This document shows positions 15,919-41,636 of a DNA stretch of 64,000 nt, piece by piece. This DNA is from Lytechinus variegatus. Taxonomy: Eukaryota > Echinodermata > Echinoidea > Temnopleuroida > Toxopneustidae. Numbering within the stretch: position 1 is the first letter of the stretch; each line of letters opens with the position of its first letter. Location of the stretch: contig NC_054743.1 of NCBI RefSeq assembly GCF_018143015.1, positions 36,769,243 to 36,833,242 of the forward strand, in the 5' to 3' direction. Both the position numbers and the translations under genes were made by a program. The notes under the pieces are model-generated. The model did no database searches, was not told the origin of the DNA, and saw only the letters and a program-made list of their open reading frames with translations.

Positions 15919-16016
15919 AGGTCATCTGTTGATTGTGGATTGTGAAGACTGATATAACAATATTGGATTTAATTGACATGTTTTCATTTATTGCTTCATT
16001 CCCGGCTTCATTCCTT

Positions 16017-16253
16017 CACAGCAAAAACTGTGGTGTTAACCGGTGAACATAGAGGACCACACCAATTATTTCACACCGGTGTTAAATTGGTGGTGTTAGT
16101 TTTACACCTATAGGTGTTATTACAACACCTATGGTTGTTACATTTACACTCTTTGGTGTTATGTTCAATCTCTAAGGTGTTATTATAACAACCTCAGGGT
16201 GTGGTCCTCTATTAACACCAATTATTGGTGTCAGTTTTAACAGTTTTCACCGT
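16017..16253. mobile_element. ACACC-rich palindromic MITE
   Basis: A roughly 237-bp element with left end CACAGCAAAAACTGTGGTGT and right end CAGTTTTCACCGTG. It is rich in GGTGTTA/TAACACC words and has a GAGGACCACACC..GGTGTGGTCCTC internal pair. It resembles the CACTGCAAAAAC family in composition and layout but differs at its ends, so it is a relative rather than a copy. Confidence 0.65.
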
Positions 16254-16445
16254 GTTGTTTTATAGGCTTTATTATGATTGAGGAATTAGAAATGATTAGG
16301 ATTCGGTCCTCCTTTAAAATAAAGAGGTTGAATCAAATGAATCTGAATGAAATAGAACAAGCATCGAGTAAATGAACTATTTTGAGGGAAACTGGGCCCA
16401 AACGCACGAAAATTTGTTTCGAATTTACTCAAGATTATAGCAACA

Positions 16446-16726
16446 TTAATAGTCAGTTATAGCGCATAACACATTATGAATAACGTCTCTATGCGATTCC
16501 AAAGGACTTAGATATTATTACCATGGCTGTAGCTCAAGCAGCTAGCTTCCAGCGCTCGGCAATTCAAGGAATAAATTCCTGCTAGGTACCCATTCACCTC
16601 ACCTGGGTTGAGTGCAGCACAATGTGGATCAATTTCTTGCTGAAGGAAACTATGCCATTATGGGTGGGATTTTAATCCACGACCCTCTGTTTCAAAGTCC
16701 GGAGACTAATCCACCGGGCCACAACG
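16446..16726 (-). mobile_element. tRNA-derived SINE, family A, antisense copy
   Basis: Read on the minus strand it starts TTGTGGCCCGGTGGATTAGT (A-box-like) followed by GGTCGTGGATTAAAATCC in the B-box position, then the body words CTTCAGCAAGAAATT, CCAGGTGAGGTGAATGGGTA and GCGCATAGAGACGTTATT, ending near GCGCTATAACTGACTATTA. The plus-strand copy at 44819-45112 matches throughout. Pol III promoter boxes are partly decayed. Confidence 0.85.
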
Positions 16727-16928
16727 TTCCACCTTATACTGAACATCCACTCATTTGATGATTAAGAATTAATGTTCCTCCTGATTTTATTTCGTTTAAT
16801 TATTTTTTTTTTGAGTCGCGCTTGGAGATATTCTTTCTGCAGCTGCTGCAGCTGCAACTGGCACGTCGAAGTCAGTAGTTACACGCCCTCTCGTGTTTCA
16901 TTTCTTAAATGTTATCATTTTTGTCAAG
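16727..16928 (+). promoter_or_regulatory. probable 5' region of TMEM135 exon 1a
   Basis: The 200 bp before the 16929 ATG hold a short GC-rich patch (16845-16900, with a CAGCTGCTGCAGCTGCAACTG repeat) and no TATA box that I can support. The start lies in TCAAGATGGCAGCC, which gives A at -3 and G at +4 and resembles the YY1-type AAGATGGC motif found at starts of housekeeping genes. The transcription start cannot be fixed from sequence. Confidence 0.35.
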
Positions 16929-17072
16929 ATGGCAGCCCCCAGCAAACTCTGGGAGATTGCGACCTGTTATGAACTTGGTCATTGTTGGACCCCTAGTTGC
17001 GTAGCAGCTACTTTATCTGTAGGAAAGGCATCGGTGAAATATTCTCTGAAATTGTATACTGCATTCTACTTA
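16929..17072 (+). CDS. TMEM135: TMEM135 exon 1a (48 codons)
   Basis: ATG at 16929 in a strong context, ending TACTTA|GTAAGT, phase 0. The peptide begins MAAPSKLWEIATCYELGHCW and keeps the C-Y-E-x-x-H-x-W-x-P-S-C pattern of the family's Cys-rich N-terminal domain, followed by a VKYSLKLYTAFYL segment like vertebrate EESLKIYAPLYL. It is closer to the vertebrate N-terminus than exon 1b is. To join exon 2 at 25419 it must splice over 8.3 kb of transposon-rich DNA and skip exon 1b. Confidence 0.88.
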
Positions 17073-20000
17073 GTAAGTATGGTTAATGGGAAAATAACGG
17101 AGAGATAACACGTTGGTCTAAGTAGGCTAATCCTTTTTGTATGGGCGGTGTGCATGTGAGCGATGTGGGGGCGGAGACCGCGACAGGGCCCGAGACCCTG
17201 GCCTTGGGTGCCTCGCAGAAATTTCCCGTGCTCCGCGGCGTGATCTCGCAGTCGCAGTAGCCAGGGGCGTTGTGGGGAGTGAAAGTTATATAGTGTACGT
17301 AGCTCACTCCCCACTAACGCCAGGAATCACCGTACATGCCTTTGCGTATCAGACAGGATTACCCATGGTGAACCTAGACCTAAATCACCAATTTTAGTTA
17401 TAGTTTTTCGCCCAAAGTTATGTACATGGGCAAGTTTTATGTTTACCCCCATTTGATTCTATTTCTTTTATTTTTCATTAAATAAATAGTCGTAAAATTG
17501 AAAGAAATTAAGAGCAACAGCGTTCACTTACCCCCGTCTGTTTACGAAGCCATTTTGATTTCTTTTGTTATGATACCTAGATACACACGCGTGCAGAGCT
17601 GCAACTTAGATTTAAAAAATACTTGCATTTGTCAATAAAAATCACGATTTGTAAAATATTTGTTTCGGTTGAAAAATATCATGAAATAATTTATATATTT
17701 ATCGATAAAAAAAAATATTTTGCGATTCCTGATATCTATCGGCAGATGCAAATATTTTTTTAATTCAAGTTGGCGGTTTGACTGCCAACTTGAATTAAAA
17801 AAATATTTGCATCTGCCGATAGATATCAGGAATCGCAAAATATTTTTTTTTATCGATAAATATCATATAAATTATTTCATGATATTTTTCAACCGAAACA
17901 AATATTTTACAAATCGTGATTTTTATTGACAAATGCAAGTATTTTTTAAATCTAAGTTGCAGCTCTGCACGCGTGTGTATCTAGGTATCATAACAAAAGA
18001 AATCAAAATGGCTTCGTAAACAGACGGGGGTAAGTGAACGCTATTGCTCTTAATTTCTTTCAATTTTACGACTATTTATTTAATGAAAAATAAAAGAAAT
18101 AGAATCAAATGGGGGTAAACATAAAACTTGCCCATGTACATAACTTTGGGCGAAAAACTATAACTAAAATTGGTGATTTAGGTCTAGGTTCACCATGGGT
18201 AATCCTGTCCGATACGCAAAGGCATGTACGGTGATTCCTGGCGTTAGTGGGGAGTGAGCTACGTACAGTATATAACTTTCACTCCCCACAACGCCCCTGG
18301 CTAAGTCGCAGGAGATTGTTTCGCCTCCGAGTAAGTTAGTCTCATTCATAAGGCAGGGCTCGGCGCTAATGCAGTTTCGCACCGGTCGATTACTAGCACA
18401 CCTAATCACCAATACTTGTTCCCAAATGTCATGACAAGTCTCTCAGTCACATTTTGATGTCAATATATCCACCACTTTTCAAAATATTGTGATCGGGAAT
18501 GGCTGTATTTCGGCTTCGATCTCAACGTCGTTGATCGACACGGCGTAGACATCGCTTCGCGGATCGCTTGGATTCACCGTGCATGCACCGTAATGTTGAT
18601 ATGAACTGAAGTTAGCAACCTAATCATGCGAAAATGTGGCGAACAAACTGCCAGCATGCCGCATGCGAATCTATGTTTGCATGATTTGGTTGCTAACTTC
18701 AGTTCATATCAACATTACTTGCATGCACGGTGAATCCAAGCGATCCGCGAAGCGATGTCTACGCCGTGTCGATCAACGACGTTGAGATCGAAGCCGAAAT
18801 ACAGCCATTCCCGATCACGATATTTTGAAAAGTGGTGGATATATTGACATCGAAATGTGACTGAGAGACTTGTCATGACATTTGGGAACAAATATTGGTG
18901 ATGAGGTATGCTGGTAACCGGCCGGTGCGAAACTGCATTAGCGCCCAGGGCTCCACACTAACCCATTTTTTCTGCTGGTCCAACCTTTTCATGTCGGACC
19001 AGTAGATACCCAGTTTTTCAAATTTTTACTGGTCCTAACCTAAAATCTACTGGTCCTGAAAAATAAAGAAAACATAAAAAAAGGCACAAGTTTATTTGTC
19101 TAGCCTTTCGTTAACCCCCCCCAAATAAAATGAAGGAATGAAGACAAAAAGAAAGCAAGACAGAAACGAAGAAGGAAGGAAAGACAGGAAGGAAGGAAGG
19201 AGGAAGGAAGGAAGGAAAAGAAAGAATAAGAGAAAGGAAGGAAGGAAAAGAAAGAATAAGAGAAAGGAAGGAAGGAAAAGAAAAAATAAGAGAAAGGAAG
19301 GAAAGAAAGAATAAAAAAGGAAGGAAGAAAAAAGAACAGGTAAAGAAAGGATAGATGTGAGGAAAAAAGAAGAACTAAAGAAGGAAAGGAATGAAGAAGG
19401 AACAAAAATAAGAAAGAAAGAAAAAAAAGAAATGAAGGAAAGAAAGAAATGAAGCAAGCAATTCAGAAAGAAAGAAATCCAGAAAGTAGTAGGCCGTAAA
19501 GGAAAGAAAGAAGAAGCAATAAAAAAAGAAAGGGTTAAAGGAGAGATGGAAAGAAGGACAAAAGAAAGAAAGAGAGGAAGGAAAGATTGAAAGAAGGAAG
19601 AAAGGAATTAAGGAACAAATAAAGAAAAGGTAAAATGATAGATAGATAGAAATAAAGGGAAGGAAGGAAAGCAAGCAATATAAAAAAAAGAAAAGGTAAA
19701 AGAATAGATTGAAAGGAAGAAAAAAAGAAAGACTGAGAGACAAAGAAAGGAAGTAATACAAAAAAGGTAAATAAATGATGGAAGGAAGAAATAAAGAAAG
19801 TAACGAAGAATGAAGGAAAGAAATGGGTAAAAGGAAGAAGAGAAGAGATGAATATACGATGGATGGACTAAAGAATCAAAGAAAGAAAAATATCAAAAAG
19901 AAAGGAAGGAAGAAAGAAAGAAAAAAAGACGGAAAGAAAAAGAAATAGAGAAAAATATTTTTTTAAAGCATAGAAAGAATGAAAGAACGAATAAAGAAAA

Positions 20001-23000
20001 AAGGGAAAATAAAAAAGAAAGACAGTAACAAAAAACAGAAGAGAGGGAAAAAACAAAGAAAGATTGAAAAGAAAGAAGGAAAGAAAGATAGGAAGAAAGC
20101 TAAAACTGTCATCATAAATAATTCATCAATTTCTTTTTGGCTCAATTAAAATAGCTACGAAAGAAAGTCAGAAACCAAGTGTATCAACACACACATGAAT
20201 GCATATGTGGGGCTCATATGTATTCAGACGATATCGCCCAAAACCCGATCTGTTTGAACCAAACAGAAGTGAAAATTTATCCTTTTACTGCTTACAAATG
20301 ACAGAGTTACTCCAATTTTTAGGAAATATGGACATCATAAGAGCCTTTCATGAGTATGAACCATGAATTTTGACAGTTCTGTGAGAGATTTCTGCCAGAG
20401 TTTAGCCAAGCTTCGTTCGTGCAGCCAGTAGAAAATTTACCACGTAGGGTGTGTTGCTGGCTACATGTACACTGTATCTACTCTAGTAGCAATTACGTGC
20501 GATTCATTCTGTGTGTATTCTGTGTGTGGATGACAGAATTTATCGGGGGGAAATGGTTTGCAGCGAATTTGATCATTTCTGGAAAAGTTATTGGTCCAAC
20601 AATGGTTTTTATTACTTGTCATGTCGGACCCTTAAAATCTTGCTATTTTTGGAAAAATTACTGGCCAGACAATGACATTTTTTTACTGGTCATGTCAGAC
20701 CAGTAAATCTTCCTATTTCTGAAAATCTACTGGCCCGACAGCGATTTTTACCGGTCTGGGACCGTCGGACCGCCGCTTGTGTCGAGCCCTGCATAAGGGG
20801 GGGGGGGCACAAGACATGCAAGAGGGCTGAGAGTGAGATGATAGTGCAGTTATTGCCAGACTTATAGAGAGCTGGCAGCCGTCTGTTTCAAGGAGTTTTT
20901 AAACATTTTTTATTTTTTAATTTCTCCTCGTACACAGACAGCTCGCTATTGACTGTGCAGCCACCATTAGGGGGTGAACAATGCAAAATTCTCCCGACGG
21001 GGCACATTGATTTTTGTCTTTATTTCATAAAAATATTGAAAAAGAATTGAACGGAAATGCAGATTATTATTCCATTTTGGCCTGAAATGCACCACAATGG
21101 GGAAAAATCAACTTAAAAGGGGAAAAACAGTGACTTAGATCTACTTCAGCTGTCGCACAACTTCACAGTCTTCACTCCCTCGTTTTATCCGAACGTAAGT
21201 ATTTATAGCTTAATAAATAGAGTAGAATCCACTGAGCAAAATGCCGAAAATTTCATCAAAATTGGATAAGGAATAATAAAGTTATTTAAGTTTTAAGTTT
21301 AGCAATATTTTGTGAAAACAGTCGTCATGAATATTCATTAGGTGGGCTGATGATGTCACATCTCCACTTACTGTTTTGTTATGTTATTACATAAAATCAT
21401 ATTTTTTTCATTATTTCATATTTTGGTGAATAATATGTATCCCTTATTATGAAATAAGTTGCAGCAATAAATATCTAATGCGCTAAATCAGTTGTCAATC
21501 CAATTTGTCTAGTTCTTGGAGGAAAAAATTGAATAAACCTAATTTCATATAATGAAATACAAAAGAACAAGTGGAGATGTGACATCATCAGCCCACCTGA
21601 TGAATATTCATGACGACTGTTTTCGCCAAATATTGTTAAACTTTAAAATTCAATAACTTTGTTATTTGTTATCCGATTTTTATGAAATTTTCAGCATTTT
21701 GCTCAGTGAATTCCACTCTATTTATTAAGCTATAAATACTTTCAGCCCGGACCACCCCTTTAAGTACATAAACATATGGCCATCGAGTCCCCTGTACAGA
21801 TTGCGCTAGAACTTCGGTGTCTGTATTTGGTGAGTGGAGCCAACGTAGTTCAGTGGAACAACCAACAGAAACAGAGACCGAAGCTTTTGGTCTATGCCAG
21901 ACTCTGAGTTACACAATCACAGCTGAGATCTAATCTCTTAATTGTAATTAGTCTTGGCCTTGGAGGAGTTTTTCCCACACTCTACAGATAAAAAAAGGAG
22001 TGCATTTAGTTTACTTTAGAATCCATATCCATATTTAGGGACAGTGATTTTCCGCGATCGCGGAAAACGGACGGAATTCATGGAAATGGCCTTTTGAAAC
22101 GGAAAGTGGCATTTCAAACGGAAAATCACAGAAAACATATTTTTCCTCAAAATACACAGAACAGCAACATAAATTACTCAAAAATATCAACAAAATATGA
22201 ATATTAAATGGCCACAAAACCTCACAAAACACGATCTCACTTGACCAAAATCAACATATCATGACTGCTCTTCACTCCTTCACACCAAATCGTACCCCTC
22301 ACCCCGGTCCTTCCCGGCCGCTCTGGCAGTGTACGGTCGATCGGCCGTATCAAAATCATTCACATGCAGGTCGTGTTTTGCTGAATATGTACAGCACGAT
22401 CTTGAATTCCAAAATGGCGGATAGAATGAAATCGTTGACTGCTCGAAACGATGTCCAAAACCCCCCCAAATTATCTATAAAAGTTCATTCAACAGTGAAA
22501 TAATGCTAGAAATGTAAAAGGTGAGGATGTATTCATGTGAGATATATGTGTCAAAATATTTTTTTGTGCCCGCATAGATCCGATTAGAGCGGATTCTACT
22601 GTGTTGTTGGTACAGTGACAGATCCAAATTTTGACCAGCGCGAGCGTTAACTTGTGTTATTGCTACTGGATAGGTAAACGGAATTGTCACTTTTCCGTGT
22701 GTACAAAGTCTCTATAGGGAAACGGAATTTCCATTTTCTGACATGCCGAAACAGAATTTAAGATTTTCTGAAACGAAAAAGGCAATTTTTTGAAACGGAA
22801 AATCACTGTCCCTACATATTAATCAAACAACCTACTTAGCCTGACACGAGAAAGTAACTTTTTAGAACGAGACATCACACACCCTACATATGTAATTGAT
22901 TCATGACATTTGATTGTAAGCCCCACTGTGAATTAAGTGAGATGTAGCTAACGTTAGTCCAGTTCCACATTGGAAAAATTCATGGATTAACAGAGACAAA

Positions 23001-26000
23001 AAATCTGAAAATGGGGTATACAAATTTTTATTTTTTGAAATTTCATTATTTTTTTTAAAATTTCATTTTCATTCTTTTTCATTTCATTTCATATCAGTTG
23101 TGAAACCATGTGGTCCAGTGCTAACTCACACTTACATAGCAATGAGAGGTTTATATGTTAACTTTATACAGGGATTATAGACTAGTGCTGCAAGTCAGGC
23201 GGCATGTTCGGGTTCGGTTCGGCAGGGTTCGGCAATTTTTTCTGAACTTTGGTTCGGTTCGGGGTTTGGCAATAAATGACAAATTAAATTTAAGGTTGGC
23301 CTTGAGTCTGGCCTGGGATTAGCTTGGTCACAGTCCATGGTCACAAAGCCCAATATTATTTAATTATGTAATCTAAAGACCCTGATAATGTTCTACTAGA
23401 TATAAATTTTACAAATGACTCTATTTACAATTTCATGAGCTATACCATAATTTTGTTGATCTCAGCAGAACTGAGGATGCATCAATTTGCTTTTGCTTTT
23501 GGTGAGTTCTGCAGTTGTCATTTGCAGTTGGACATTAACTTTTGGTGATAAATTCTCAATCTGAAGTACAGATTTTTATTCAGATTGAAAATGGCAGAAA
23601 TGAGTAGATTTTGGCAGCAGTGTACTTGTTATGAATTTCTTCACTGTTGGTCCCCATCATGTTCAGGAGCTGTTTTTTCGATTGTGAATGCAGTGACAAA
23701 GTACTCTATTAGGATGCATGCAATTTTTTATGTGGTATGTATCAGTATGTCAATCTGGGGCCGATTGCACGAAAGGGTCTTTCCAAGGACCATCTTTCGT
23801 GTCGCCCACCTTTTATGATACGCTGTATGCAGGATATTTCTCAAATTTATGATAAGCAAATAAAATTTGTTAGCTAGCTTTTAAATCAATTTTTACACAA
23901 TTTCACTACATGTAGTTTTCTTTAAAGTGCATAAAGTGTGCTCCTTCAGTTTAATATACAGAGTGAGGTTTATGATTTTTTTTATTAATACACCTCAGAA
24001 ATTGCTAATTCAATTAGAGGGATTGCCAATCTCACGAAAGAGTCCTTTCTCCCAAATAATTTGATGCAATTTTAGATGTACATTTGGATGATCAGGAAGT
24101 ATTCTTTGCTGTGATGTAAAATTTGATTCGTGCCTATAAAGTGAGGCATGTCTGCAATGAATGAATTTTGATGTCCATGAAATCAAGAGTTGCAGTAAAA
24201 TAGTTTGCAAAATTTATTGATTTTAAATAAACAAACCAACATCAGAATGAGAATCATTTCAGAAACATTTTTGTTAATCAAGAAAAAAAATGAAGAAGAT
24301 TGTTTGACCTATTTTCTTTAGGGGAGGGGGGGGGGGGGTTGCAGAAGCATTGAAATGGTTCTATCTTTCGTTGTCCATGCCCTACCTACTTCATTCCATC
24401 CATCCATCCTTTACAGGTCTCACACACATACGGACGTCTGAAAAAGAAACAGAGATTGACTTGGTCACGCCTGGTGCCTTTCTTTCGTGACGTCTTCCAG
24501 TCGACATTGTTTCTTTCTAGCAATGTCTCAATGGTCATATCTGCATTCTGTGTATTTAGGTACCTTCCAAAGTGCATGTGAATCGGAGTCGTATAGTGAC
24601 GACAATCACAAGGCAGCACACTTCCAATGTATTCATCTTTTGTTCAACGGATGATTTCAAAGTGGGAGAAAAACAATTATGAAAAACCAGTATACTTTTA
24701 TATACAGTAGAGGAAATATATTTTTTTTAAAACTCAAATGGAAGCTGAATTTCTGTTAACAAAGAATGTAATACATAGGCTTTGTGTTCCCTTCTTGTTC
24801 ACAAATTCTGGCTTGCCTTATGATTGAAATTGATTTTGGTACAATGTATGCGTAAAAGAATTTTTTTTAACGTCATTGACATCTTTTTGTTGTATTTCGA
24901 TCATTCATGGTTTCACTAATCTCACTTCTGTGCAGAGTTCAGAAGAGTCCTCTCTAATTCTTTTTTTCATCAACTTCAATTATCAATTCCTCTTTTCCAA
25001 CTGACAAATTTTGATTAGTTTTTTAATCTGATTATGTGTGTTATTTCATACTTCTTACTCCATGTATTTGTTCATGTACCACTAATTATACTTGGCAAGC
25101 CAGAATTTGCAGTCTAGTTTATGAGTATGCTATTATGTTATGCTTGAAATCGCATCTTGTTGAAAAAAAACGCGTTCATTGTAATATGAACAAGCTTTCA
25201 GAAGCAGCCAAGGCTTTTTCTTTGTTTCATATTTTCAAACTAGATCACTACTAGTGAGTTTTATTTTGCAAAGTTTTTACTTGCATCAACTATCTAGCAC
25301 TTTCAGTAGGGCATTTCATAATAGCTTTCTCATATTCTTTCAGGCTCCCCACTGCATTTTTTTCTTCAAAAATTCTTTCCTGTAAAAAAAATGTCTTTGT
25401 GTTTGTTGTGTATTACAGATATCCGCCTTAGTTCGAAAACGAAGTTGGCCGTATTTTCAAAAGGGTCTGCCTGTGGAAATCCTGCAGTCTACCGCTTTTT
25501 TGTCCACCAATGCCGCCCTCTTCATGAATTTTATTTGTGTTTATAGGTACTGTAAAATGTAAATCACCATGGGGGAAAAAATTAGAAGACATTTAGAGTT
25601 GGGAACTTGGGATTGGGATGATTGTGTCAAAAAATAAATGATTGTTTATCTTTAGTTACATGTATCAAATAGACGGTGGACCTTTTAATTACAATTTTAC
25701 AATTCAATAGTTTACTTCTTTTCATTCCCAAATATATTTTATAAATTATACGGTACATTTATTTCCAGGGTTTGGGCAAATCTTTTCATCTTATTTATTT
25801 AATTTTTATTTTCAGGTTTTTGTTTTAGTTCACTTAGATAATTTGCACCATCACTTTAGTGACCATCAACATGATCTGCACCTTTTCCTATTTTTAGTAT
25901 AAAATATTTTTAATTTCATGATAACCAGCAGAGATAAACAGTTAAAGAATGATGCTTCTTGTCATGCTTAAGAAAGAAAAGCGAAATTGCACCCTTCATC

Positions 26001-29000
26001 CGATACATGTTATTTTTCTTTATTAATCCAATTAACTACATATTGATGTTTAAATAAATGTATGAAGAGTATTGCACCCATACTTATGTTCTCTTTTTAT
26101 CAATGAGGTACTGGTTTACAATGTTTTGAAGTTAAATCCAACTATTTCAAGTTTTCCAACATTCCAACTATTTTCAATTCTATCAGAAATCTTAATTTGT
26201 ACTTTGTATGCTTCAGTATTATTTGTACGAGATGTCCTTAAAAAATAATATTTTTATCAAATAATCTCTATTTCCCCTAGAATTGATTAAAAACTTTTTA
26301 CAAAAAAATTATTGTGCGGAGACTTTGAGATTATGTCATTTATTATCGCAAGTAAATTCATTTTTATATTCAAAACTTTAAATCAGTACCTTAAATATTC
26401 TATTTGTTTTGCATAAAGTTTACCTCAAACTAATTTTGATTCTCTTGAATACAAACTTTGTTTAATGTTGAGCTTACAAAAAAAGAATAAAACCCATATT
26501 TTTTTCTGTTCAAACTTCTTTCACATTCCTGTAATTATCAGGTACTTGAATTTCAATGATTTATGCCAGTGGGGAAAAATGTTATTAATAAAAAAAGACA
26601 TTCTGAAATACCAATAGAAGTCTATGACTTATAAGAAGAAGAACTATTCAAATTCATGGCAGAATTATTAATATCATAATGAATACTATCAGCACAATAT
26701 CTTGTATTTTTTTTTACTTCAAAATCTATAATGCATATACATATAGGGGATAGTGACAGAAGTGACTGTTATCTCCTACATTTTTTTGCATATTTCTACA
26801 AAAATAAATCAATTGACCATTGTACCCATTTCTAGCTTAATATGTCCTTTATTTTTTCCTTTTTTTTTCAGACATTTATTTGGAGGTTTTTATACTGGAT
26901 TTGGTTTTATTTCTTCATTTCCTGCCTGCTTTATTGCCATATTGACTGAAAGAAAAAGCAGGTGAGTTGATGACGATGATGATGGAAATTTATTGAAACA
27001 GTGATGATGATTGTGACGGTGGGGATAGTTAGGAATGTGAGAGGATGTTGGTCGTGCTATTGAAGGTGATGGTAGGTTTGATGGTGATTTTTCTGCTGAT
27101 GATGTTGGTAAGGATGTGTAGATGAAAGAAAATTGGTAACACTGATAACGATGGCAGTGATGATTGTGAAGAAGGTGATGATGGTGATGTTGATGATGAT
27201 GATGATGATGGTGATGTTGGTGATGATAATGATGATGATGATGATGGTGATGATGGTGATGATAATGATGATGATGATGATGATAATGATGATGATGATG
27301 GTGATGATGATAGTGGTGATGTTGATGATGATGATGGTGATGATGGTGATGATGATGGTGATAATGATAATGATGTTGATGATGGTGATGATTATGATGA
27401 TTCATGATGATGATGGTGATGATGATGGTGGTGATGGTGATGATGATGGTGATGATGATGCTGATGGTGGTAGTCATTAAAAATTATGAAAACATTAGGT
27501 GGTTTCAAACCGCCTCGATCACAAGAATCCCCGTTAAATTACGAGAACCTTTTAAGGCTAAAAAATACCCGTTAATTATTCCTGCATTCACACCGCCCCG
27601 AAACACATCCTTCGGGATAAGTTCCCGAAGTTACGAGCATGCGCAGTATGGTCTGATAAGCAGGCAAGGCGCGAGATTCAAAATCACTATCCCAGCAGCC
27701 GCCCACGCCGCCGCGCCCAACGACTCGCTGGGCTAAAAGTTCCCGTAATTTGCTTTCACATCGCCAAAATACCTGCGACCTTGGAAAAATCCCCATGAAA
27801 GTTCTCGTAATTTCGCCAAGTACCTACTATTTAGCGGGTATTTTCTTTCGGGGAAATTACGCGTAGTTTGCTTTCACATTACCAAAATACCTGGTATTTT
27901 CTGATCGGGGTAAATTTCCCGATCAGAGAATACCTGGAACTGGCGAACTTCGAGGCGGTCTGAAACCACCTAATAATGGCAGGGATAGTTCTGAAGGTGA
28001 AAGGAGTATCTAAAGTAATCTTGATGGTGAAGATAGGTTTGGTGATAGCGTTGGTAATAATGATGATGTGTAGATTAAAGAACATTAGGAAACAAAATAA
28101 TGATGATGATGATGGAATTATGGAAACAATATGACAGTAGTGATGGTGAGGATATTTATGAAGTTGAAAGGAGTAATGTTGTTCGTGCTATTGAAGGTGA
28201 TGATACATGTAGGTTTGATGGTGATTTTGCGGTTGATGTTGGTAACGATGATAATTAAATAACTTTGGTACAGTAAACTCAATAATGATGGTAATGATGA
28301 CCATGATGGTGGTGATGATGGTAATGATAATGCTGCTGATGATGATGATGAAGATGAATGAAGATGATGGTGGTGATGATGATGATTTATTTACATTACT
28401 ATACTTTTGTCATTGTATTTCAGGAGATCAATGCTAGCACTCTATACAATGAATCTTGTAAGTAGCCTACATCTCTGTGACATCATTATTCCTATTCATT
28501 CCTCGCAGTGATTTTCATTTATAATTTTTTTACAATTGTGTGCACCATTGGTAAAATGTTCAGATTTTGTTTTGTTTTGTATTTTTGCTTTTCTCTTCTT
28601 GATCGTTTCACTATGAAATTTTTGTTGATTAAAATGTAAACTATCAAGAAAGTTTAGAAACAAACATACCTTTACAATTACTTCTTCCTTGCTTGTTAGT
28701 TATTCCACTTTAAAATGTCAGGAAACCAAATCCATGTCCTTTATATTAAAGCAGGTCGTCCTCCTCCTGTTCGGCTGGTCTATAAAGCATTTTGGACTGT
28801 ACATAATAAAAATAAGGAACATTCGTTCAGAATATTTTGAACTTCTTTGTATTGTTTTCCCCATCAGGAAGTAGTATTTAACATTTATCTTTTGGTTGTA
28901 CTTTGTTCATTCATGGTTTTACAGCTGCACAGAAGTGAGACTCGTGAAAGTTTCACTAATCTCACTTCTGTGCAGATTATCCCTCTCTTATTTTTTTTCA

Positions 29001-32000
29001 TCATCTTCAATTATAAACTCCTGGTTTCCAACTGACAGATTTTGATCAATTTTGAATTTGATGATTTGCTGTATTTCATTTTACTATTGCTTCATGTACG
29101 TACCACTAATTATACATGGCAGGCCTTAATTTGTGGTCTAGGTTACGAGTGTATTATATTATGCTTAAAATCGCACTTTGTTAAAAAAGTTTTTAAAAAT
29201 ATGAAGAAAAAAAATCAGCATTCATTGTAACACAAACCATCTCTTCAAAGCAACCAGGGATTTTGCTTTAGTTAGTTATTTTCAAACTATCTCTAAGTTT
29301 TATTTTGCATAGTTATTAATTCAAAATATTGTTAAATGCATATTCTGTGTAATGTTTTCCCATCAGGCCATGGAAGTAGTATTCAACATGTGTAAGCAGA
29401 GGAATTATGTCTCACCAATCAAGAATGGAGAAGTAAGTTCTATTTACTTTGTCCAAAGTTTCTGTTTCTGTTTGTGGTAACTCCCGTAGGAACTCGGCAG
29501 GACAGCATTTTTTGCTGGTAAATGCCAAGCTGGCATATAACCAATTACCTATGAAACGTTTTACGTCTAGGTTAATGAGTCATAGTGGCTGACGTTATAG
29601 AAGACAGATATCACTCTCGGGCCTTTTTATCAAAGTGAAGACAATGGCAGAGTTGGGATTCGAACTCACAACCTTGCGATTATGAGTCCAACGCTCTAAC
29701 CACTACCCTTTGTAACTACTGGACCACACGACCCTTATTAAGTAGATTTAATAATTTTTTATGGCAATATGAGAGGTATCTTTTCCTCGTGTATGATAAT
29801 CAAGAACATTGAAAGTTTGAGATGAAATGGAAGTTCATCTCAGACGCGTTTTCGTGCAATTGTACTAATGTAATGCCAGCAATACAGGCTTTGAAAAACA
29901 ATATTTAAAACGTCCCTTGTATTGTGTCAGTGGATCAATTTCTGATCATTCACGCCAAGCAAGGAATTTTTTTATCATCTTAGAGATAACAAAGAAAATA
30001 TGAATTTGTGAATAATGTGAATTTTTATACACATTATAGGGGTCTACATGTACATGTATAGTACAAGACTATGTTGCCTGGTCAGAATGTTGCACTATGG
30101 GTAATGAACATGGCCAGATCTGGGTAATCGAGGACTTAAAGGACAAGCCCACCCCGACAAAAAGTTCATTTGGATAAGAAAAGAAAAATCCATCTAGAGT
30201 AACACTGAAAATTTCATCAAAATCGGATGTAAAATAAGAAAGTTATGACATTTTGAAATTTCGCTTAATTTCACAAAACAGTTATATGTACATCCTGGTC
30301 TGTATGCAAATGAGGAGACTGATGACATCATCCACTATTTTGTATTTTGTTATCTGAAATATTCTAATTTTCTTCCCTTTGTCAAATGACACACCGATTA
30401 ATTCCTCCATGAACATGTAGAATTAGCGTTGTTTAATACTATATGGTTCAGTCAAGTTGGTCCTTATTGTCAAATCGGTAAAAAATGAAATGTTGAATAT
30501 TTCAAACTATAGTAAACAAAAGAAATAATGAGTGAGGGACATCATCGACCATCTCATTTGCATGTCACTGAGATGTGCATATCACTGTTTTGTGAAAAAT
30601 AAGCAAAACTTTAAAATGTCACAACTTTCTTATTTTACATCCGATTTTGATGAAATTTTCAGCATTATGCTTGTTTGATTTTTCTCTATTCATTCACATC
30701 AACATTTTTCTGGGGTGGACTTGACCTTTAAGGGTGGGCTAGATTAGGGCTGCTGGATCGTATGCCTTTAAAGGACAAGTCCACCCCAACAAAAACATGA
30801 TTAATAAAAAGAGAAAAAATCAACAAGCATAACATTGAAAATTTCATCAAAATCGGATGTAAAATAATAAAGTTATGGCATTTTAAAGTTTCGCTTCATT
30901 TCACAAAACAGTTATATGCTCAACTATTTCTTTTGTATTTTATTATATGCAATATGAAATATTTTTATTTTCTCATCATTGTCATGTGAAATGAAGTTTC
31001 ATTCCTCCCTGAACACATGGAATTCCATTATTTTAACATTTTGTGCTTCAGGCAAGGAGATCTTAATCATCAAATTCGTAAAAATTGAAATATTGTATAA
31101 TTCAAACAATAAAAAACAAAAGAAATAGTGAGTGAGTGATATCATCAACTTTCTCATATTTGGATGTGACTGGCTCGTTAATGTAACTATTTTGTTAAAA
31201 ATAAGCGAAACTTTGAAATGTCATAACTTTCTTATTTTACATCCGATTTTGATGACATTTTCAGCGTTATGCTAGTTTGATTTTTCTCTATTGATTCAAA
31301 TCGACATTTTTCTGAGGTGGACTTGACCTTTAAATGTATACTGGGAGCATACATTAAGAGCTAGAGGGGAAAGGAGGGGGGGGGGGGGGGGGGTTATGAT
31401 CACAAGTAAATTGTAATTGTTGATTATTTATACAAAGCGGTTCCCCCATGACCTCAAAAGGCATATACACACTGCACATTAGTACCTCTTTTTTGGTTTA
31501 GAATTGTATTCAACTGTAATAATTAGTATATTCATTGATTGTATGTATGAAGTAATTAGTCGGTTAGAACAAATATGTCGAGATTAGCAGATTTTCGTGT
31601 TACTATCAAGGGACATGCTCATAACCTTGCTGGTATCTCGTCTCTGTTTATTCATTTTATCATGGTGAACCTGCATGATGTCCAATGTCTACATTTTTGC
31701 TGGAAAAACCTGCTGGTTGTTGGACAAGTGCATACAGGATGGCCAGCTTTAGTAGTGAAATATGCGTTTACAACGTTGTTTGTACATATGGAAACAAATT
31801 AATTTGAGATGTTTAGCTTTGGTTTGCTTCTTGTTGGCCAAGCCTTGTTTTAACCTTAAAAGGCCCAAGGGAAGGGGGGGGGGGTATGGGAAATGATCTG
31901 CCCCCTCACACTTCACATTTTTGCGATAAATCTATTAAAACTTGGAATGCTCTTGCAACGTTTTTTATGTGTTCTTTTTTGTCAAGTCTCGTGCAACTCT

Positions 32001-33721
32001 TGAGACCAAATTTGCGACCCCCAGGTAAATGGTTCTGAAATTACATAACATTTTGTGTATGTCAGACAAAAAAGAAAAAATGAAGGATTTCATGCATACT
32101 TTTGGTAAATTTTGTGAAAATTTATAGTTAAAAATGTAAGTTTTAAGATTTTCTAGGAGCACAAGGATTCTAATTTCTTTCTGTCAAGTCTCATGCAACT
32201 TTTGAGACCAAATTTGCGATTCCTGGGTACACGGTTCTGGAATTTACGCATCATTTCGTGAATGTCAGAAAAAAATGAAGGATTTCATGCACACTTTTGA
32301 TGAATTTTGTGAAAATTTATAGTTAAAAATTTAAGTTTTCAAAATTTCTGGGGGGCAATTTTCTCCCAAACCACCACCCCCTGCCTCCCCCGGCATACAG
32401 CTATGATAGTAATTTTAACTTGAGAGCCTCATTCTGGACCCTTGCTTCTTTAGGAGCCCCCAAAGAATGAATAACCCTCACTCGTTTAGATTTTTGTGAA
32501 AGTGTGTCATCTTGATCTGATGTATGTTTGTGAATGTTTGTGAATGAATTATCCTCCAATACACATTTCAAGGAAATTACCTGAATGCAACTTACCCTCT
32601 ACTCCCTGGTACATAAAGCTCAGCAATCGATCATTGGAGTAGCTTTTTACGATTGATCATACGCACTAATCAATGCAGTCGATTGCAGAAATCAGTCTCA
32701 TGATCATTCATTGCGCTTTGTGTGACAGGGCCCTGGAGTGGACTGGTCATTATCTAGACATTCTATGATGACCTGAGGGAATCATTTCAAGGGTCATCTT
32801 CACTCTTGGATTAATTCCTTTTGATTTTTGATTGGCATTTGTTATGATTTAGATGCCTGGAGTGTGATAAGAAGCATGTATATTCAGGGTCAGTCTATTC
32901 TTAGGGGTAAACTCCACTTCACCGCTTATCAAGACTGATCGTGTCAATTTATTCTGAAATGATAAGATATAAACCATTTGAAGTGGCAGGATTCGGACTA
33001 TAAATAATATTTGATTGCAATAGGTTTTATATATTTTCATTAATCAGAAAAAAAAGGAAGCTTGTGTCAAACAAGCATTCGATCAAGGATATTTTAAAGG
33101 ATATTTTTACCATAGTACATGTAGGTCCATGTTTTAACTGAGCTTTCATCAGGGGACCGTTTCATCAACATTTTTGTCCGACAAGTTGTCAGATCTGACA
33201 TCTTTCCTTGATTCTGATTGGCTGAGAGGAACTGTTACTATAGTAACTGTCGGATAAAACGGGACTTGTCGGATAAAACGTCTGACAAGTCCTTTCATGA
33301 AACGCTCCCCAGAAGTGTATTTTGTCTGCAGTTCAGTTCATACTGAAAATTGTTATGTAATTTGTATGAAATCAGTTTGTAAATATCCTAACTTCCCCTT
33401 TACTTTGAGTCTCGTTTTCCTGCGCACTCTTGAACCAAATTGATGATTTCAGGATAGTTCTGTTGGTGTATCAGTGATCTCTGCGTTGGAGTTTTTAGTC
33501 CTTTATGACCAGACGACTATACCCTTTATGACCAGACCACCAGAGAGAAAGATATGCACAGTGCTATCAATATTTGATCACATATTTCAGAATTGTCGGT
33601 GCAATGGCCTGGTGAAAAATATGTTATGATGATTTAATTTTATAATCATTCTCTCAATTGACCTCTCATTTCAGGTTTTGATATTTGCAGCTGCCTCAGC
33701 AATCATCTTCTGTATGCTCCG
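16929..33721 (+). CDS. TMEM135: TMEM135 orthologue, 5' part (exons 1-6, open at 3' side)
   Basis: Transmembrane protein 135, a multipass membrane protein of the Tim17-like group; in vertebrates it is linked to peroxisomes, mitochondrial dynamics and lipid handling. Six coding steps match the vertebrate protein in order: the Cys-rich N-terminus (TCYELGHCWTPSC), VEILQSTAFLSTNAALFMNF, FIAILTERKSR, MLALYTMNL, AMEVVFNMC..KNGE, and VLIFAAASAIIFCMLR. All junctions are GT..AG with matching phases (0,2,2,0,0,2). Using one first exon, 509 nt (169 codons plus 2 nt) are present, roughly the first 37% of a family protein of about 458 residues. The next exon (vertebrate CKDGLKGF region) was not found before the right edge. 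The first exon occurs twice (see both entries). The orthology call is firm; the localisation is from the family only. Confidence 0.9.
17073..17257. other. GC-rich start of intron 1a
   Basis: From about 17135 to 17257 the sequence is GC-rich and CpG-rich, unlike the AT-rich surroundings. It may belong to a promoter-associated CpG patch of exon 1a or be foreign DNA. It is continued by 18312-18346 on the other side of the palindromic insertion. Confidence 0.4.
17258..18303. mobile_element. 1046-bp foldback transposon, near-perfect palindrome
   Basis: Two arms of about 515 bp each meet at about 17780, with a spacer of only a few bases. The ends are TAGCCAGGGGCGTTGTGGGG and its complement CCCCACAACGCCCCTGGCTA. 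Exact 8-bp direct repeats AGTCGCAG flank it at 17250-17257 and 18304-18311, so it inserted as a unit. The arms differ at only a few positions, which points to a young insertion or ongoing arm homogenisation. Both arms carry the same open frame on opposite strands, a mirror effect and not a gene. An 8-bp duplication fits hAT or P-like elements; no transposase is present. Confidence 0.9.
18362..18945. mobile_element. 584-bp foldback nested in the hAT left end
   Basis: A palindrome from GGCGCTAATGCAG to CTGCATTAGCGCC with its centre near 18650. It is bordered by exact direct repeats CAGGGCTC (18354-18361 and 18946-18953), which are the first eight bases of the hAT terminus and therefore the target duplication. 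The outer arms pair nearly fully; near 18385-18402 and 18905-18915 they differ. It is non-coding. The 8-bp duplication and long arms fit a hAT- or Mutator-like foldback. Confidence 0.9.
19130..20110. repeat. 980-bp polypurine tract (GGAA/GAAA-type)
   Basis: Almost pure A and G on the plus strand, made of shifting GGAAGGAA, GAAAGAAA and AAGGAAGG units with a near-exact 26-bp-scale repeat around 19210-19300. It lies wholly inside the hAT element. Long Phe/Ser/Leu open frames on the minus strand come from the TTC/TCC composition and are not genes. Confidence 0.95.
20792..21185. other. gene-free stretch
   Basis: No gene was seen; a G10 run lies just past the hAT target duplication. Confidence 0.4.
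21186..21763. mobile_element. foldback element, superfamily member with AAGTATTTATAGC arms
   Basis: A roughly 578-bp foldback. AAGTATTTATAGCTTAATAA at the left pairs with TTATTAAGCTATAAATACTT at the right. Mid-arm motifs GAAAATTTCATCAAAATTGG and GATGATGTCACATCTCCACTT are mirrored. The ends differ from the AAGTCCACCCC foldbacks but the mid-arm motif is shared. Confidence 0.8.
22036..22814. mobile_element. hAT-like element, TAGGGACAGTGATTTTCCG ends
   Basis: A 779-bp element with TAGGGACAGTGATTTTCCG at the left and CGGAAAATCACTGTCCCTA at the right, a perfect 19-bp inverted match. CATATT occurs directly outside both ends, a 6-bp direct repeat, possibly a worn 8-bp duplication. Subterminal GAAACGGAAA words repeat inside both ends. 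The centre (22260-22460) is GC-richer and holds a 80-codon open frame with no recognised relative. No transposase was recognised. Confidence 0.8.
22815..23590. other. stretch before TMEM135 exon 1b
   Basis: Contains a GGTTCGG-rich patch at 23195-23275 that resembles a worn element end (GCAGGGTTCGGC). No TATA box or CpG patch comparable with exon 1a was found upstream of exon 1b, so its promoter is unclear. Confidence 0.4.
23591..23734 (+). CDS. TMEM135: TMEM135 exon 1b (duplicate first exon, 48 codons)
   Basis: ATG at 23591 in GAAAATGGC (A at -3, G at +4), ending TATGTG|GTATGT, phase 0. The peptide begins MAEMSRFWQQCTCYEFLHCW and ends TKYSIRMHAIFYV. It has the same length and phase as exon 1a and keeps C-Y-E-x-x-H-x-W-x-P-S-C. 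About 40% of residues match 1a by eye. It lies 1.7 kb before exon 2, so it is the nearer donor. The frame is intact with no stop, arguing against simple decay. It could be an alternative first exon or what is left of a tandem gene copy; no other duplicate exon lies between 17.1 and 23.6 kb. Confidence 0.82.
23735..25418 (+). other. TMEM135 intron 1b, with a repeat block shared with intron 4
   Basis: Bases 24885-25280 match 28894-29317 in intron 4: both have TTCATTCATGGTTT, TCACTAATCTCACTTCTGTG, ACCACTAATTATAC, and AGTTTTATTTTGCA at the end. A half of a TTTCATAAA-like element (GATTGCACGAAAGGGTC) is at 23762-23830. A G13 run lies at 24325-24338. No further exon was seen. Confidence 0.6.
25419..25546 (+). 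CDS. TMEM135: TMEM135 exon 2
   Basis: Acceptor TATTACAG|ATATCC and donor TATAG|GTACTG; 128 nt, phase 0 in, phase 2 out. It encodes ISALVRKRSWPYFQKGLPVE and then ILQSTAFLSTNAALFMNFIC, matching vertebrate AAILRKRKLDYYLHKLLPE and [20 protein letters not shown]. The second half is hydrophobic and likely a membrane segment. Confidence 0.93.
26872..26961 (+). CDS. TMEM135: TMEM135 exon 3
   Basis: A strong polypyrimidine acceptor (T-rich run, TTTTCAG|ACATTT) and donor GCAG|GTGAGT; 90 nt, phase 2 in and out. It encodes HLFGGFYTGFGFISSFPACF then IAILTERKSR, matching vertebrate [20 protein letters not shown] and ERKSR. The Gly-rich hydrophobic segment followed by ERK-S-R is a family landmark. Confidence 0.93.
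26962..28423 (+). repeat. TMEM135 intron 3: (GAT)n minisatellite with higher-order units
   Basis: Nearly the whole intron is GAT/GGT-rich. About 27170-27470 is simple GATGATGGT array. Outside it, longer units recur at about 26970-27140, 27973-28090 and 28100-28260, sharing words such as GTCGTGCTATTGAAGGTGAT and GTAGGTTTGATGGTGATTTT. The array is split by a TIR element at 27498-27970. Long Met or His open frames are composition artefacts. Confidence 0.9.
27498..27970. mobile_element. 473-bp TIR element inside the (GAT)n array
   Basis: Ends GGTGGTTTCAAACCGCCTCG and CGAGGCGGTCTGAAACCACC, one mismatch in the outer 20, with TA outside each end. A direct internal repeat (AATTTGCTTTCACAT..CCAAAATACCTG) occurs at about 27747 and 27866. 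CpG-rich compared with its host. Perhaps a Tc1/mariner- or ISL2EU-like non-autonomous element; the family is unsure. Confidence 0.8.
28424..28457 (+). CDS. TMEM135: TMEM135 exon 4 (34 nt)
   Basis: Acceptor GTATTTCAG|GAGATC, donor AATCTT|GTAAGT; phase 2 in, 0 out. Encodes (R)RSMLALYTMNL, matching vertebrate RRGLLTIYMANL. It is a very short exon but the alignment and both splice sites support it. Confidence 0.9.
28458..29366 (+). other. TMEM135 intron 4, with a relic of exon 5
   Basis: At 28852-28884 the sequence GTTTTCCCCATCAGGAAGTA followed by GTATTTAACAT repeats the real exon 5 border (GTTTTCCCATCAG|GCCATGGAAGTAGTATTCAACAT) with six bases lost after the AG. It is followed directly by the repeat block shared with intron 1b (28894-29317). 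A 14-bp-arm hairpin (AGAAGTGAGA / TCTCACTTCT) lies at 28930-28971. Confidence 0.7.
29367..29432 (+). CDS. TMEM135: TMEM135 exon 5
   Basis: Acceptor CCCATCAG|GCCATG, donor GGAGAA|GTAAGT; 66 nt, phase 0 at both ends. Encodes AMEVVFNMCKQRNYVSPIKN then GE, matching vertebrate [22 protein letters not shown]. Confidence 0.93.
29480..29740 (-). mobile_element. tRNA-derived SINE, family B, antisense
   Basis: On the minus strand it reads TAGTGGTTAGAGCGTTGGAC (A-box and anticodon-stem-like) followed by GTGAGTTCGAATCCCAAC (B box), then a non-tRNA body. It sits in TMEM135 intron 5. The head is better preserved than in family A and the family is different. Confidence 0.8.
30136..30731. mobile_element. 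foldback, TTAAAGGWCAAGTCCACCCC family, copy A
   Basis: A 596-bp foldback in intron 5. The left end TTAAAGGACAAGCCCACCCC pairs with the right end GGGGTGGACTTGACCTTTAA. The mirrored mid-arm motif is AAAATTTCATCAAAATCGGA with TAAAATAAGAAAGTTATGAC, and near the centre GATGACATCATC. Non-coding. Confidence 0.88.
30778..31333. mobile_element. foldback, TTAAAGGWCAAGTCCACCCC family, copy B
   Basis: A 556-bp second copy 46 bp after copy A, same orientation, with TTAAAGGACAAGTCCACCCC at the left and AGGTGGACTTGACCTTTAA at the right. The arms share the mid-arm motif of copy A; the central 100 bp differ more. Confidence 0.88.
31334..31977. other. gene-free part of TMEM135 intron 5
   Basis: Contains a G18 run at about 31376-31393. 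A 75-codon open frame at 31575-31802 has no recognised relative and no splice context. Confidence 0.4.
31978..32345. repeat. 204-bp tandem duplication
   Basis: Two head-to-tail units: GTCAAGTCTCGTGCAACTCT begins unit 1 (31980) and GTCAAGTCTCATGCAACTTT begins unit 2 (about 32184). Both continue TGAGACCAAATTTGCGA, then ATGAAGGATTTCATGCA and GAAAATTTATAGTTAAAAAT. Unit 2 is slightly shorter at its end. Confidence 0.85.
32346..33151. other. gene-free part of TMEM135 intron 5
   Basis: No exon was seen. Bases 32620-32730 hold an inverted pair around GATCATTGGAG/ATGATCATTC-like words, possibly a worn MITE. Confidence 0.35.
33152..33310. mobile_element. MITE, GTTTCATAAA family, copy 4
   Basis: A 159-bp element starting GGGGACCGTTTCATCAACAT and ending TCCTTTCATGAAACGCTCCCC. 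The core GATTCTGATTGGCTGAGAGG matches the AGCCAATCAGAATC core of copy 3 read in reverse, which ties it to the same family. Confidence 0.75.
33675..33721 (+). CDS. TMEM135: TMEM135 exon 6
   Basis: Acceptor CATTTCAG|GTTTTG, donor CTCCG|GTAAGA; 47 nt, phase 0 in, phase 2 out. Encodes VLIFAAASAIIFCMLR (last codon split), matching vertebrate VLLFCITAAMYMFFFR, a membrane segment. The following exon, expected to encode a K-D-G-L-x-G-F-like start, was not found in the remaining 30 kb. Confidence 0.92.
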
Positions 33722-41406: not shown

Positions 41407-41636
41407 TTATTGTGCAGGCATCTTACACACAAAGGGATGTCTCTCGTGGCACGAAGAATCCACCCAGACCGCCACGCCCATCATGGGGACAATCTGACGG
41501 GCACAGTTTTCCATTTGGGCGGAGTCGCTGGGTTCGCCCCTGTGCCAGTTGGTGTAGTTGACGGGTGATTTGTCCAGCCAACTCCACTGGCCCTCGTGGC
41601 CTCGGTCTGACAGACCTATCCACATCCCTGGGTCGC
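41407..41636 (-). CDS. C-type lectin exon 2
   Basis: 230 nt beginning after the acceptor CTATCCTAACCCAG and ending at TAA (41407-41409). Encodes GDPGMWIGLSDRGHEGQWSW through to PFVCKMPAQ. An AATAAA-like signal (minus strand) lies at 41395-41400, only a few bases past the stop, so the 3' UTR may be very short or use another signal. Confidence 0.88.

What the first reader, a model, noticed from the sequence alone, without database searches (positions are those of the whole stretch)
16929..23734. TMEM135 has two intact, equally long first coding exons feeding one exon 2
Exons 1a and 1b both have 48 codons, phase 0, a good start context and a donor, and keep the C-Y-E-x-x-H-x-W-x-P-S-C signature, yet differ at more than half the residues. 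No other duplicate exons lie between them. This looks like a duplicated first exon that could swap the Cys-rich N-terminal domain of the protein, possibly under separate promoters. It may change targeting or partners.
Basis: partly seen in the sequence, partly recalled or inferred. Interest (0 to 1): 0.8.

Follow-up and report, generated by a model that had tools for sequence, protein, structure and literature searches.

The report
TMEM135 with two duplicated 5' exons
A sea-urchin-like TMEM135 gene carries two intact versions of each of its first two coding exons, so it could make several proteins that differ only in their first ~95 residues; gene variants of this kind are known elsewhere, and no RNA was available here to prove that both versions are used.

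Summary
Exons 1a (16929-17072) and 1b (23591-23734) are real, homologous (22 of 48 residues identical), in frame and intact. But they do not feed one exon 2: exon 2 is duplicated too (2a 24417-24559; 2b 25419-25546). Both exon 2s run from phase 0 to phase 2, so an mRNA needs exactly one; both or neither breaks the frame. All four combinations match the TMEM135 N-terminal family (100.5-138.3 bits, cut-off 27). Order is 1a-1b-2a-2b; 1a and 2b are the conventional versions. A second, inverted copy of the locus 2.5 Mb away (haplotig or duplication) keeps all four exons intact; 1b differs there at 3 bases, all synonymous, 2a at none. No third TMEM135 gene was found. Most likely reading: alternative first exon plus mutually exclusive second exon, swapping the Cys-rich N-terminus and the first predicted membrane segment. 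Expression, promoter use and pairing are inferred, not shown. Weak points: no transcripts, no second species, no promoter signal at 1b, omega too imprecise to exclude one drifting copy. New member of a known kind, moderate interest.

The parts
16929..17072 (+). Exon 1a: start codon and 48 codons, phase 0 donor gtaagt; conventional version
   Evidence: alone 42.7 bits to PF15982
23591..23734 (+). Exon 1b: start codon and 48 codons, phase 0 donor gtatgt; divergent version
   Evidence: alone 25.5 bits to PF15982, just under the cut-off of 27; 3 of 3 differences between the two genomic copies synonymous
24417..24559 (+). Exon 2a: 143 nt, phase 0 to 2; divergent version, 5 codons longer than 2b
   Evidence: alone 16.3 bits to PF15982, under the cut-off; 0 differences between copies
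25419..25546 (+). Exon 2b: 128 nt, phase 0 to 2; conventional version
   Evidence: alone 29.5 bits to PF15982
26872..26961 (+). Exon 3 (one version found), phase 2 to 2
28424..28457 (+). Exon 4 (one version found), phase 2 to 0
29367..29432 (+). Exon 5 (one version found), phase 0 to 0
33675..33721 (+). Exon 6 (one version found), phase 0 to 2; the next exons located lie beyond the window
24802..25109 (+). Stem-loop in the 2a-2b intron: perfect 16-bp arms 24802-24817 and 25094-25109; role unknown
   Evidence: RNA fold z = -3.23 for 24790-25125, 0 of 100 shuffles as stable
24880..25300 (+). Intronic element upstream of 2b, about 71% like one at 28950-29321 upstream of exon 5; found only in this gene and its second copy
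   Evidence: control repeat

Best explanation
This is a TMEM135 gene of an echinoderm (probably a sea urchin) in which the first two coding exons were each duplicated. SHOWN: two intact exon 1s, two intact exon 2s, compatible phases, one shared set of downstream exons, and a frame that breaks if both or neither exon 2 is used. INFERRED: each mRNA takes one exon 1, chosen by start-site choice (alternative first exon), and one exon 2, chosen by mutually exclusive splicing. 1a-2b would make the standard protein and 1b-2a the alternative one, with 1a-2a and 1b-2b also possible in frame. The C-terminal half is unchanged; the Cys-rich N-terminus, a basic stretch and the first predicted membrane segment (human 67-89) are swapped (2a has 8 Lys/Arg against 5 in 2b, and 5 more residues). 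That would most plausibly tune membrane insertion, targeting between peroxisome and mitochondrion, or partner binding.
For: All four exon combinations score over the PF15982 cut-off of 27 bits: 1a2b 138.3, 1b2b 120.0, 1a2a 118.8, 1b2a 100.5. Including both exon 2s, or none, gives stops. Paralogue exons keep homology at high synonymous divergence: 1a/1b pS 0.63, pN 0.36, omega 0.35; 2a/2b core of 23 codons omega 0.37; both together 0.36, 95% 0.14-0.73. Simulated free drift to about half that distance (0.7 per site) leaves an intact exon 1 in at most 0.22% and an intact exon 2 in at most 0.88% of 20000 runs. Two genomic copies of the locus both keep all four exons with their splice sites; exons 1a-6 differ at 4 of 796 sites against 407 of 13692 noncoding sites; all 4 exon differences (3 in 1b, 1 in exon 5) are synonymous. 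Expected amino-acid-changing differences in 1b plus 2a: 3.7-6.6, observed 0. No third TMEM135 gene was found in the genome.
Against: No transcript data and no second species could be examined. Bootstrapped omega does not exclude 0.5 or more (25% of resamples for 1a/1b, 32% for the 2a/2b core, 20% together), as expected if one copy were unconstrained. At the base level 1b (3 of 144) is no more conserved between copies than its flanks (59 of 3535). With a shorter assumed drift (0.3 per site) the simulation leaves up to 2.9% (exon 1) and 7.4% (exon 2) intact. 1b and 2a alone score under the PF15982 cut-off (25.5 and 16.3 bits). Exon 1b has no CpG-rich promoter-like setting. Donors of 1a, 2a and 2b are weak in a generic recalled matrix (90.2, 88.8 and 82.8 percentile). 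Exons for about residues 165-250 of the human protein were looked for and not found, so the whole reading frame was not reconstructed.
Confidence: 0.68

Rival explanations
1. Nested two-exon cassette: 1b and 2a arose together, as one copy of the exon 1-2 block inserted into intron 1 (1a-[1b-2a]-2b), and are used as a unit from a promoter near 1b, giving only two proteins, 1a-2b and 1b-2a. This is a sharper form of the best explanation.
For: 1b and 2a are neighbours (682-bp intron) and are the two divergent versions, while 1a and 2b are the two conventional ones. Divergence of the two pairs is the same: pN 0.361 and 0.361, pS 0.63 and 0.62.
Against: Synonymous sites are near saturation, so equal divergence is weak evidence. 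The self-comparison of 16000-34500 showed no intronic homology that would mark a block copy. A tandem copy of the block would give 1-2-1'-2', which is not the order seen; two separate single-exon tandem duplications give the observed order directly.
Confidence: 0.3
2. Two independent single-exon tandem duplications, used in free combination (up to four proteins).
For: The order 1a-1b-2a-2b is what two adjacent exon duplications give; all four combinations are in frame and match the family. A partial exon copy elsewhere in the gene (window-frame 92974-93059) shows that exon copying recurs here.
Against: Both pairs show the same divergence; the divergent copies lie next to each other.
Confidence: 0.35
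3. 1b and 2a are decaying relics of old duplications that are no longer used.
For: No RNA evidence; each alone matches the family below its cut-off; 1b lacks a promoter-like CpG setting; base-level divergence of 1b between copies equals its flanks; omega of 0.5 or more is not excluded.
Against: Both exons are open, with splice sites, after near-saturating synonymous divergence, which free drift rarely leaves intact; 3 of 3 differences in 1b are synonymous (chance about 0.012). For contrast, the partial exon copy at 92974-93059 is in another frame, has no matching donor that I could see and carries an indel between the two genomic copies.
Confidence: 0.2
4. Assembly artefact or a separate TMEM135 gene whose first exons were misplaced here.
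For: The genome does hold a second, inverted, similar copy of the locus, which may be a retained haplotype.
Against: Both copies show the same order of all four exons; exons 1b and 2a were found only in these two places, and no further exon 3 was found elsewhere.
Confidence: 0.03

Closest known systems
Homologous mutually exclusive exons / tandem duplicated exon substitution (PMC3228551 and PMC9741552; abstracts and passages seen)
   Same: 2a and 2b: similar length, same phases, GT-AG sites, homologous, adjacent, inclusion of exactly one forced by frame.
   Different: Mutually exclusive use in RNA is not shown; the pair is divergent; it sits directly after a duplicated first exon.
Alternative first coding exons / multiple-promoter terminal exons (type B in PMC3228551, passages)
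   Same: 1a and 1b: each starts with ATG, same length, same donor phase, homologous.
   Different: No transcription start evidence for either; 1b lacks a promoter-like CpG context.
Chelicerate sDscam tandem 5' cassettes (PMC4835542, passages)
   Same: Alternative two-exon 5' modules (exons 1-2) that could be joined to shared downstream exons.
   Different: sDscam cassettes are tandem arrays of whole blocks, with promoters reported; here the order is 1a-1b-2a-2b, there are two versions only, and the protein is an organelle membrane protein.
Human TMEM135 isoforms (PMC8303332, passages)
   Same: Same gene family, alternative splicing predicted.
   Different: Human isoform 2 lacks residues 133-154 (by length and place probably the counterpart of exon 5 here, my inference); the passages seen mention no duplicated first or second exon.

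Membership tests
[quoted passage not shown]
   All four spliced combinations 100.5-138.3 bits, cut-off 27
TMEM135 | Conserved C-terminal half (Tim17-like) | tested here: inconclusive
   Five C-terminal stretches match the human protein (recalled) 29-36 kb beyond the window; the PF02466 genome search gave 4 places, none at this locus
Mutually exclusive exons (criteria A-C of PMC3228551) | A: about the same length | tested here: met
Mutually exclusive exons (criteria A-C of PMC3228551) | B: conserved splice-site pattern and reading frame | tested here: met
   Both AG acceptor, GT donor, phase 0 to 2
Mutually exclusive exons (criteria A-C of PMC3228551) | C: sequence similarity | tested here: met
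   tblastn E 6.9e-4 and 5.6e-4 in 204 kb; 15 identities in 52 columns, shuffle z 7.4
Mutually exclusive exons | RNA shows exactly one of the two | not testable with these tools
   No transcripts held; frame argument only
Alternative first exons | Each has its own start codon, matching donor phase and homology | tested here: met
Alternative first exons | Separate transcription starts | tested here: inconclusive
   CpG o/e 0.83 at 1a, 0.36 at 1b, window median 0.57; no start-site data
sDscam-type tandem 5' cassettes | Tandem array of whole exon 1-2 blocks, 1-2-1'-2' | tested here: not met
   Order is 1a-1b-2a-2b

The most novel reading that the evidence does not exclude
An organelle membrane protein gene carries a whole alternative N-terminal module (exons 1b and 2a) nested inside its own first intron, switched as a unit by a second start site, so that one gene makes two TMEM135 proteins with a shared C-terminal core and different N-terminal regions and first membrane segments, perhaps sorted to different organelles.
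Probability: 0.25. Interest if true: 0.6.

Novelty: new member of a known kind. Interest (0 to 1): 0.42.

Why it matters
TMEM135 is reported in peroxisomes and mitochondria and affects mitochondrial fission (PMC10541902, abstract and passages); the passages I saw do not say what its N-terminal Cys-rich domain does. If this animal really makes versions that differ only in that region, comparing them in one cell type would be a natural experiment on what the N-terminus does. It would also add a case where a first exon and the next exon are both duplicated.

Tried and rejected
Looked for further copies of exons 1-6 in 204 kb around the gene and 150 kb around the second copy: none beyond those listed, at E up to 1 only short weak hits. 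Looked for the exons that encode about residues 165-250 of human TMEM135: nothing convincing. Relatives in viral contigs: 3 pattern matches, none confirmed; genome contigs was not scanned, as it holds no animals. Papers: TMEM135 with 'isoform' and 'exon' 31 papers, 20 listed; with 'sea urchin' 0; with 'echinoderm' 0; with 'mutually exclusive exon' 1, whose passages show an unrelated co-occurrence; a broad 2-of-5-terms search, 15 of 9130 listed, none of the 15 holding TMEM135; 'first exon duplication' 14 papers, the 10 listed mostly on dystrophin. Terms on the N-terminus and isoforms had no match in PMC10993500. Solved structures: 0 matches at E up to 1. A structure prediction was not run: only near-identical sequences of the window could serve as its alignment. 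A noncoding divergence of 4.7%, with a Fisher p of 3.6e-11 and an expectation of 10 changes, came out; I dropped these because block edges were probably misaligned, and use (3.0% overall, 1.7% for 22900-26871). First translations were one base off and were redone. A first tblastn run returned nothing because of an option that the program lacks and was redone. RNA pairing across introns as a splicing switch was considered; the 16-bp stem and the locus-specific element in the 2a-2b intron could take part, but nothing shows it.
Full report
What is there. The window is G000:C4:36769243-36833242 of an 870-Mb genome in 33 contigs; the window's GC is 36%. The finding's two first exons are real. Exon 1a is 16929-17072 and exon 1b 23591-23734, each 48 codons ending in phase 0 before a GT donor, each with A at -3 and G at +4 of the start codon. 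They share 22 of 48 residues, including C-Y-E-x-x-H-x-W-x-P-S-C; the alignment score of 138 compares with a best of 28 in 5000 shuffles.

There is not one exon 2 but two. Exon 2a (24417-24559) and exon 2b (25419-25546) are both open, both start in phase 0 and end in phase 2, and are homologous (15 identities in a 52-column alignment, shuffle z 7.4; tblastn E about 6e-4 in 204 kb). Putting both in, or leaving both out, shifts exon 3 out of frame and gives stops. So a working mRNA needs exactly one of them. Exons 3 to 6 were found in one version each (26872-26961, 28424-28457, 29367-29432, 33675-33721). Five C-terminal stretches lie at window-frame positions about 93.1 to 99.9 kb, beyond the window, and match the recalled human protein. 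The part for about residues 165-250 of the human protein was not found.

Which versions are conventional. All four N-terminal combinations match the TMEM135 Cys-rich family PF15982 from profile position 3 to 133 of 134 and above the cut-off of 27 bits: 1a-2b 138.3, 1b-2b 120.0, 1a-2a 118.8, 1b-2a 100.5. Alone, 1a scores 42.7, 2b 29.5, 1b 25.5 and 2a 16.3, the last two below the cut-off. Against the recalled human protein, 1a has 21 and 1b 15 identities over 48 columns; 2b has 20 over 43 and 2a 11 over 50. So 1a and 2b are the conventional pair, 1b and 2a the divergent pair, in the order 1a-1b-2a-2b. Positions where 1a and 1b agree against human (9; only 2 where 1b agrees with human against 1a), and where 2a and 2b agree against human (3; 1 where 2a agrees with human against 2b), suggest that both duplications came after the split from chordates; with one recalled outgroup this is only a hint.

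Are 1b and 2a under selection? Three lines say yes, none alone decisive. First, synonymous sites are near saturation (pS 0.63 and 0.62) while protein changes are fewer (pN 0.36 in both): omega 0.35 for 1a/1b (95% 0.12-0.87), 0.37 for a 23-codon core of 2a/2b (0.12-1.06), 0.36 together (0.14-0.73). Omega of 0.5 or more, expected if one copy drifts freely, is not excluded (25%, 32% and 20% of resamples). Second, simulated free drift to a distance of 0.7 leaves an intact exon 1 in 0.05-0.22% and an intact exon 2 in 0.16-0.88% of 20000 runs, depending on the indel rate; at 0.3 the figures are 0.3-2.9% and 1.2-7.4%. Third, the genome holds a second copy of the locus, inverted, at C4 about 34.14-34.34 Mb. 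The eight exons (1a, 1b, 2a, 2b, 3-6) and their splice sites are intact there. Exons differ at 4 of 796 sites against 407 of 13692 aligned noncoding sites (Fisher p 2.5e-6), and the 4 differences (3 in 1b, 1 in exon 5) are all synonymous (bases; translations identical). In 1b plus 2a, 3.7 to 6.6 amino-acid changes would be expected at noncoding rates and none is seen (P 0.025 to 0.0014). Against this, 1b's raw divergence (3 of 144) is no lower than that of its flanks (59 of 3535), and the differences are unevenly spread, so these P values are optimistic.

What the second copy is. Homology runs through the window and beyond it, at 88-98% in blocks of over 1500 bases, and the far end of the fetched stretch, 36.950-36.953 Mb, still matches 34.137-34.140 Mb at 90%. 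The end points span about 195 kb; the stretch from about 36.89 to 36.95 Mb was not aligned. It may be a retained haplotype placed in inverted orientation or a true inverted duplication; I cannot tell. Either way the exon arrangement is seen twice, and exons 1b and 2a were found nowhere else (8 places, 4 per copy, being exons 1a, 1b, 2a and 3; 2 places, exon 1a of each copy). A misplaced separate gene is therefore unlikely.

How it would work. 1b has its own ATG. A splice from 1a into the AG just before 1b (exon start 23584) would run into a stop after 7 codons (read), so 1b makes sense best as a first coding exon, from its own start site or after an untranslated upstream exon. The surroundings of 1a have GC 0.46 and CpG o/e 0.83, those of 1b 0.36 and 0.36; 400-bp windows have a median CpG o/e of 0.57 and a 90th percentile of 1.07, so 1a is above the middle but not exceptional and 1b is below it. 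Acceptor-like AGs lie upstream of 1b (23584 at the 91st, 23466 at the 97th percentile under a generic, recalled matrix). A promoter at 1b is thus possible but has no support yet. For exon 2, the 2a acceptor scores above the 2b acceptor (99.9 against 95.1 percentile) and both donors are weak (gtacct, gtactg; 88.8 and 82.8), which leaves room for regulated choice. The 859-nt intron between 2a and 2b contains a perfect 16-bp inverted repeat (24802-24817 with 25094-25109; fold z -3.23) and an element (24880-25300) that is about 71% like one in the intron before exon 5. That element was found at only 4 places in the genome (2 introns in 2 copies), whereas a control repeat from the same gene (30140-30730) gave 9004 first-look candidates. 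The tool skips very common words, so this is good but not complete evidence that the element is locus-specific. A role in splicing is a guess.

What changes in the protein. The swapped part covers residues 1 to about 91 (with 2b) or 96 (with 2a): the Cys-rich start, a basic stretch, and the place of the first predicted membrane segment of the human protein (67-89 in PMC8303332, passages). 2a is 5 residues longer and more basic (8 Lys/Arg against 5). With 2a, 19-residue hydropathy windows exceed 1.3 between residues 74 and 103; with 2b none does before residue 96. Papers place TMEM135 in peroxisomes and mitochondria, with an N-terminal Cys-rich and a C-terminal Tim17 domain and a putative Pex19 site (PMC10541902, passages). 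Changed targeting is thus a reasonable but untested idea.

Known relatives of the design. The exon 2 pair meets the published search criteria for mutually exclusive exons: similar length, same splice pattern and frame, homology (PMC3228551, passages). That paper files homologous terminal exons such as 1a/1b as multiple-promoter exons. Two-exon 5' cassettes with their own promoters are reported in chelicerate sDscam genes (PMC4835542, passages), but as tandem whole blocks. Human TMEM135 isoforms described in PMC8303332 (passages) lose internal residues; the passages mention no duplicated exons. Nothing on this arrangement in TMEM135 was found in the searches listed; the library lacks most subscription journals and all bioRxiv preprints.

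Verdict. The anatomy is solid, richer than reported, and most simply read as an alternative first exon plus mutually exclusive second exon. Use in RNA, pairing and consequence remain to be shown. It is a new member of a known kind.

Noticed in passing
G000:C4 about 34.14-34.34 Mb against 36.76-36.95 Mb (L003-L011, L026-L031): The window has a second, inverted copy 2.5 Mb away on the same contig, 88-98% identical in long blocks, with end points spanning about 195 kb: retained haplotype or large inverted duplication.
   Followed up: partly
window 41407-42748, minus strand: A two-exon C-type lectin gene (PF00059, 66.8 bits for the spliced protein; exon ends read by eye) lies between exon 6 and the next located exon of TMEM135, on the other strand. 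Nine of the 37 ORFs of 95 aa or more were also scanned; none matched Pfam at E 0.01.
   Followed up: partly
window 17258-18303 and 18359-18948: Two long palindromes (98.4% and 91.6% self-complementary) sit in the intron after exon 1a and are absent from the second copy of the locus, so they look like recent fold-back insertions.
   Followed up: partly
window 24880-25300 and about 28887-29321: An intronic element occurs before exon 2b and before exon 5 and, in the genome search, nowhere else apart from the second copy.
   Followed up: partly
window 28859-28886: A short stretch resembling the acceptor and start of exon 5 lies about 500 bp upstream of exon 5, like a relic of an exon copy (seen by eye).
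   Followed up: no
L014, window-frame 92974-93059 (beyond the window): A partial copy (86 nt, 80% identical) of a C-terminal TMEM135 exon lies just upstream of that exon, in another frame and with an indel between the two genomic copies: a decaying exon duplicate.
   Followed up: partly
window 30140-30730: Member of a very common dispersed repeat (9004 first-look candidates in the genome, 40 scored), about 70% self-complementary over its length.
   Followed up: no
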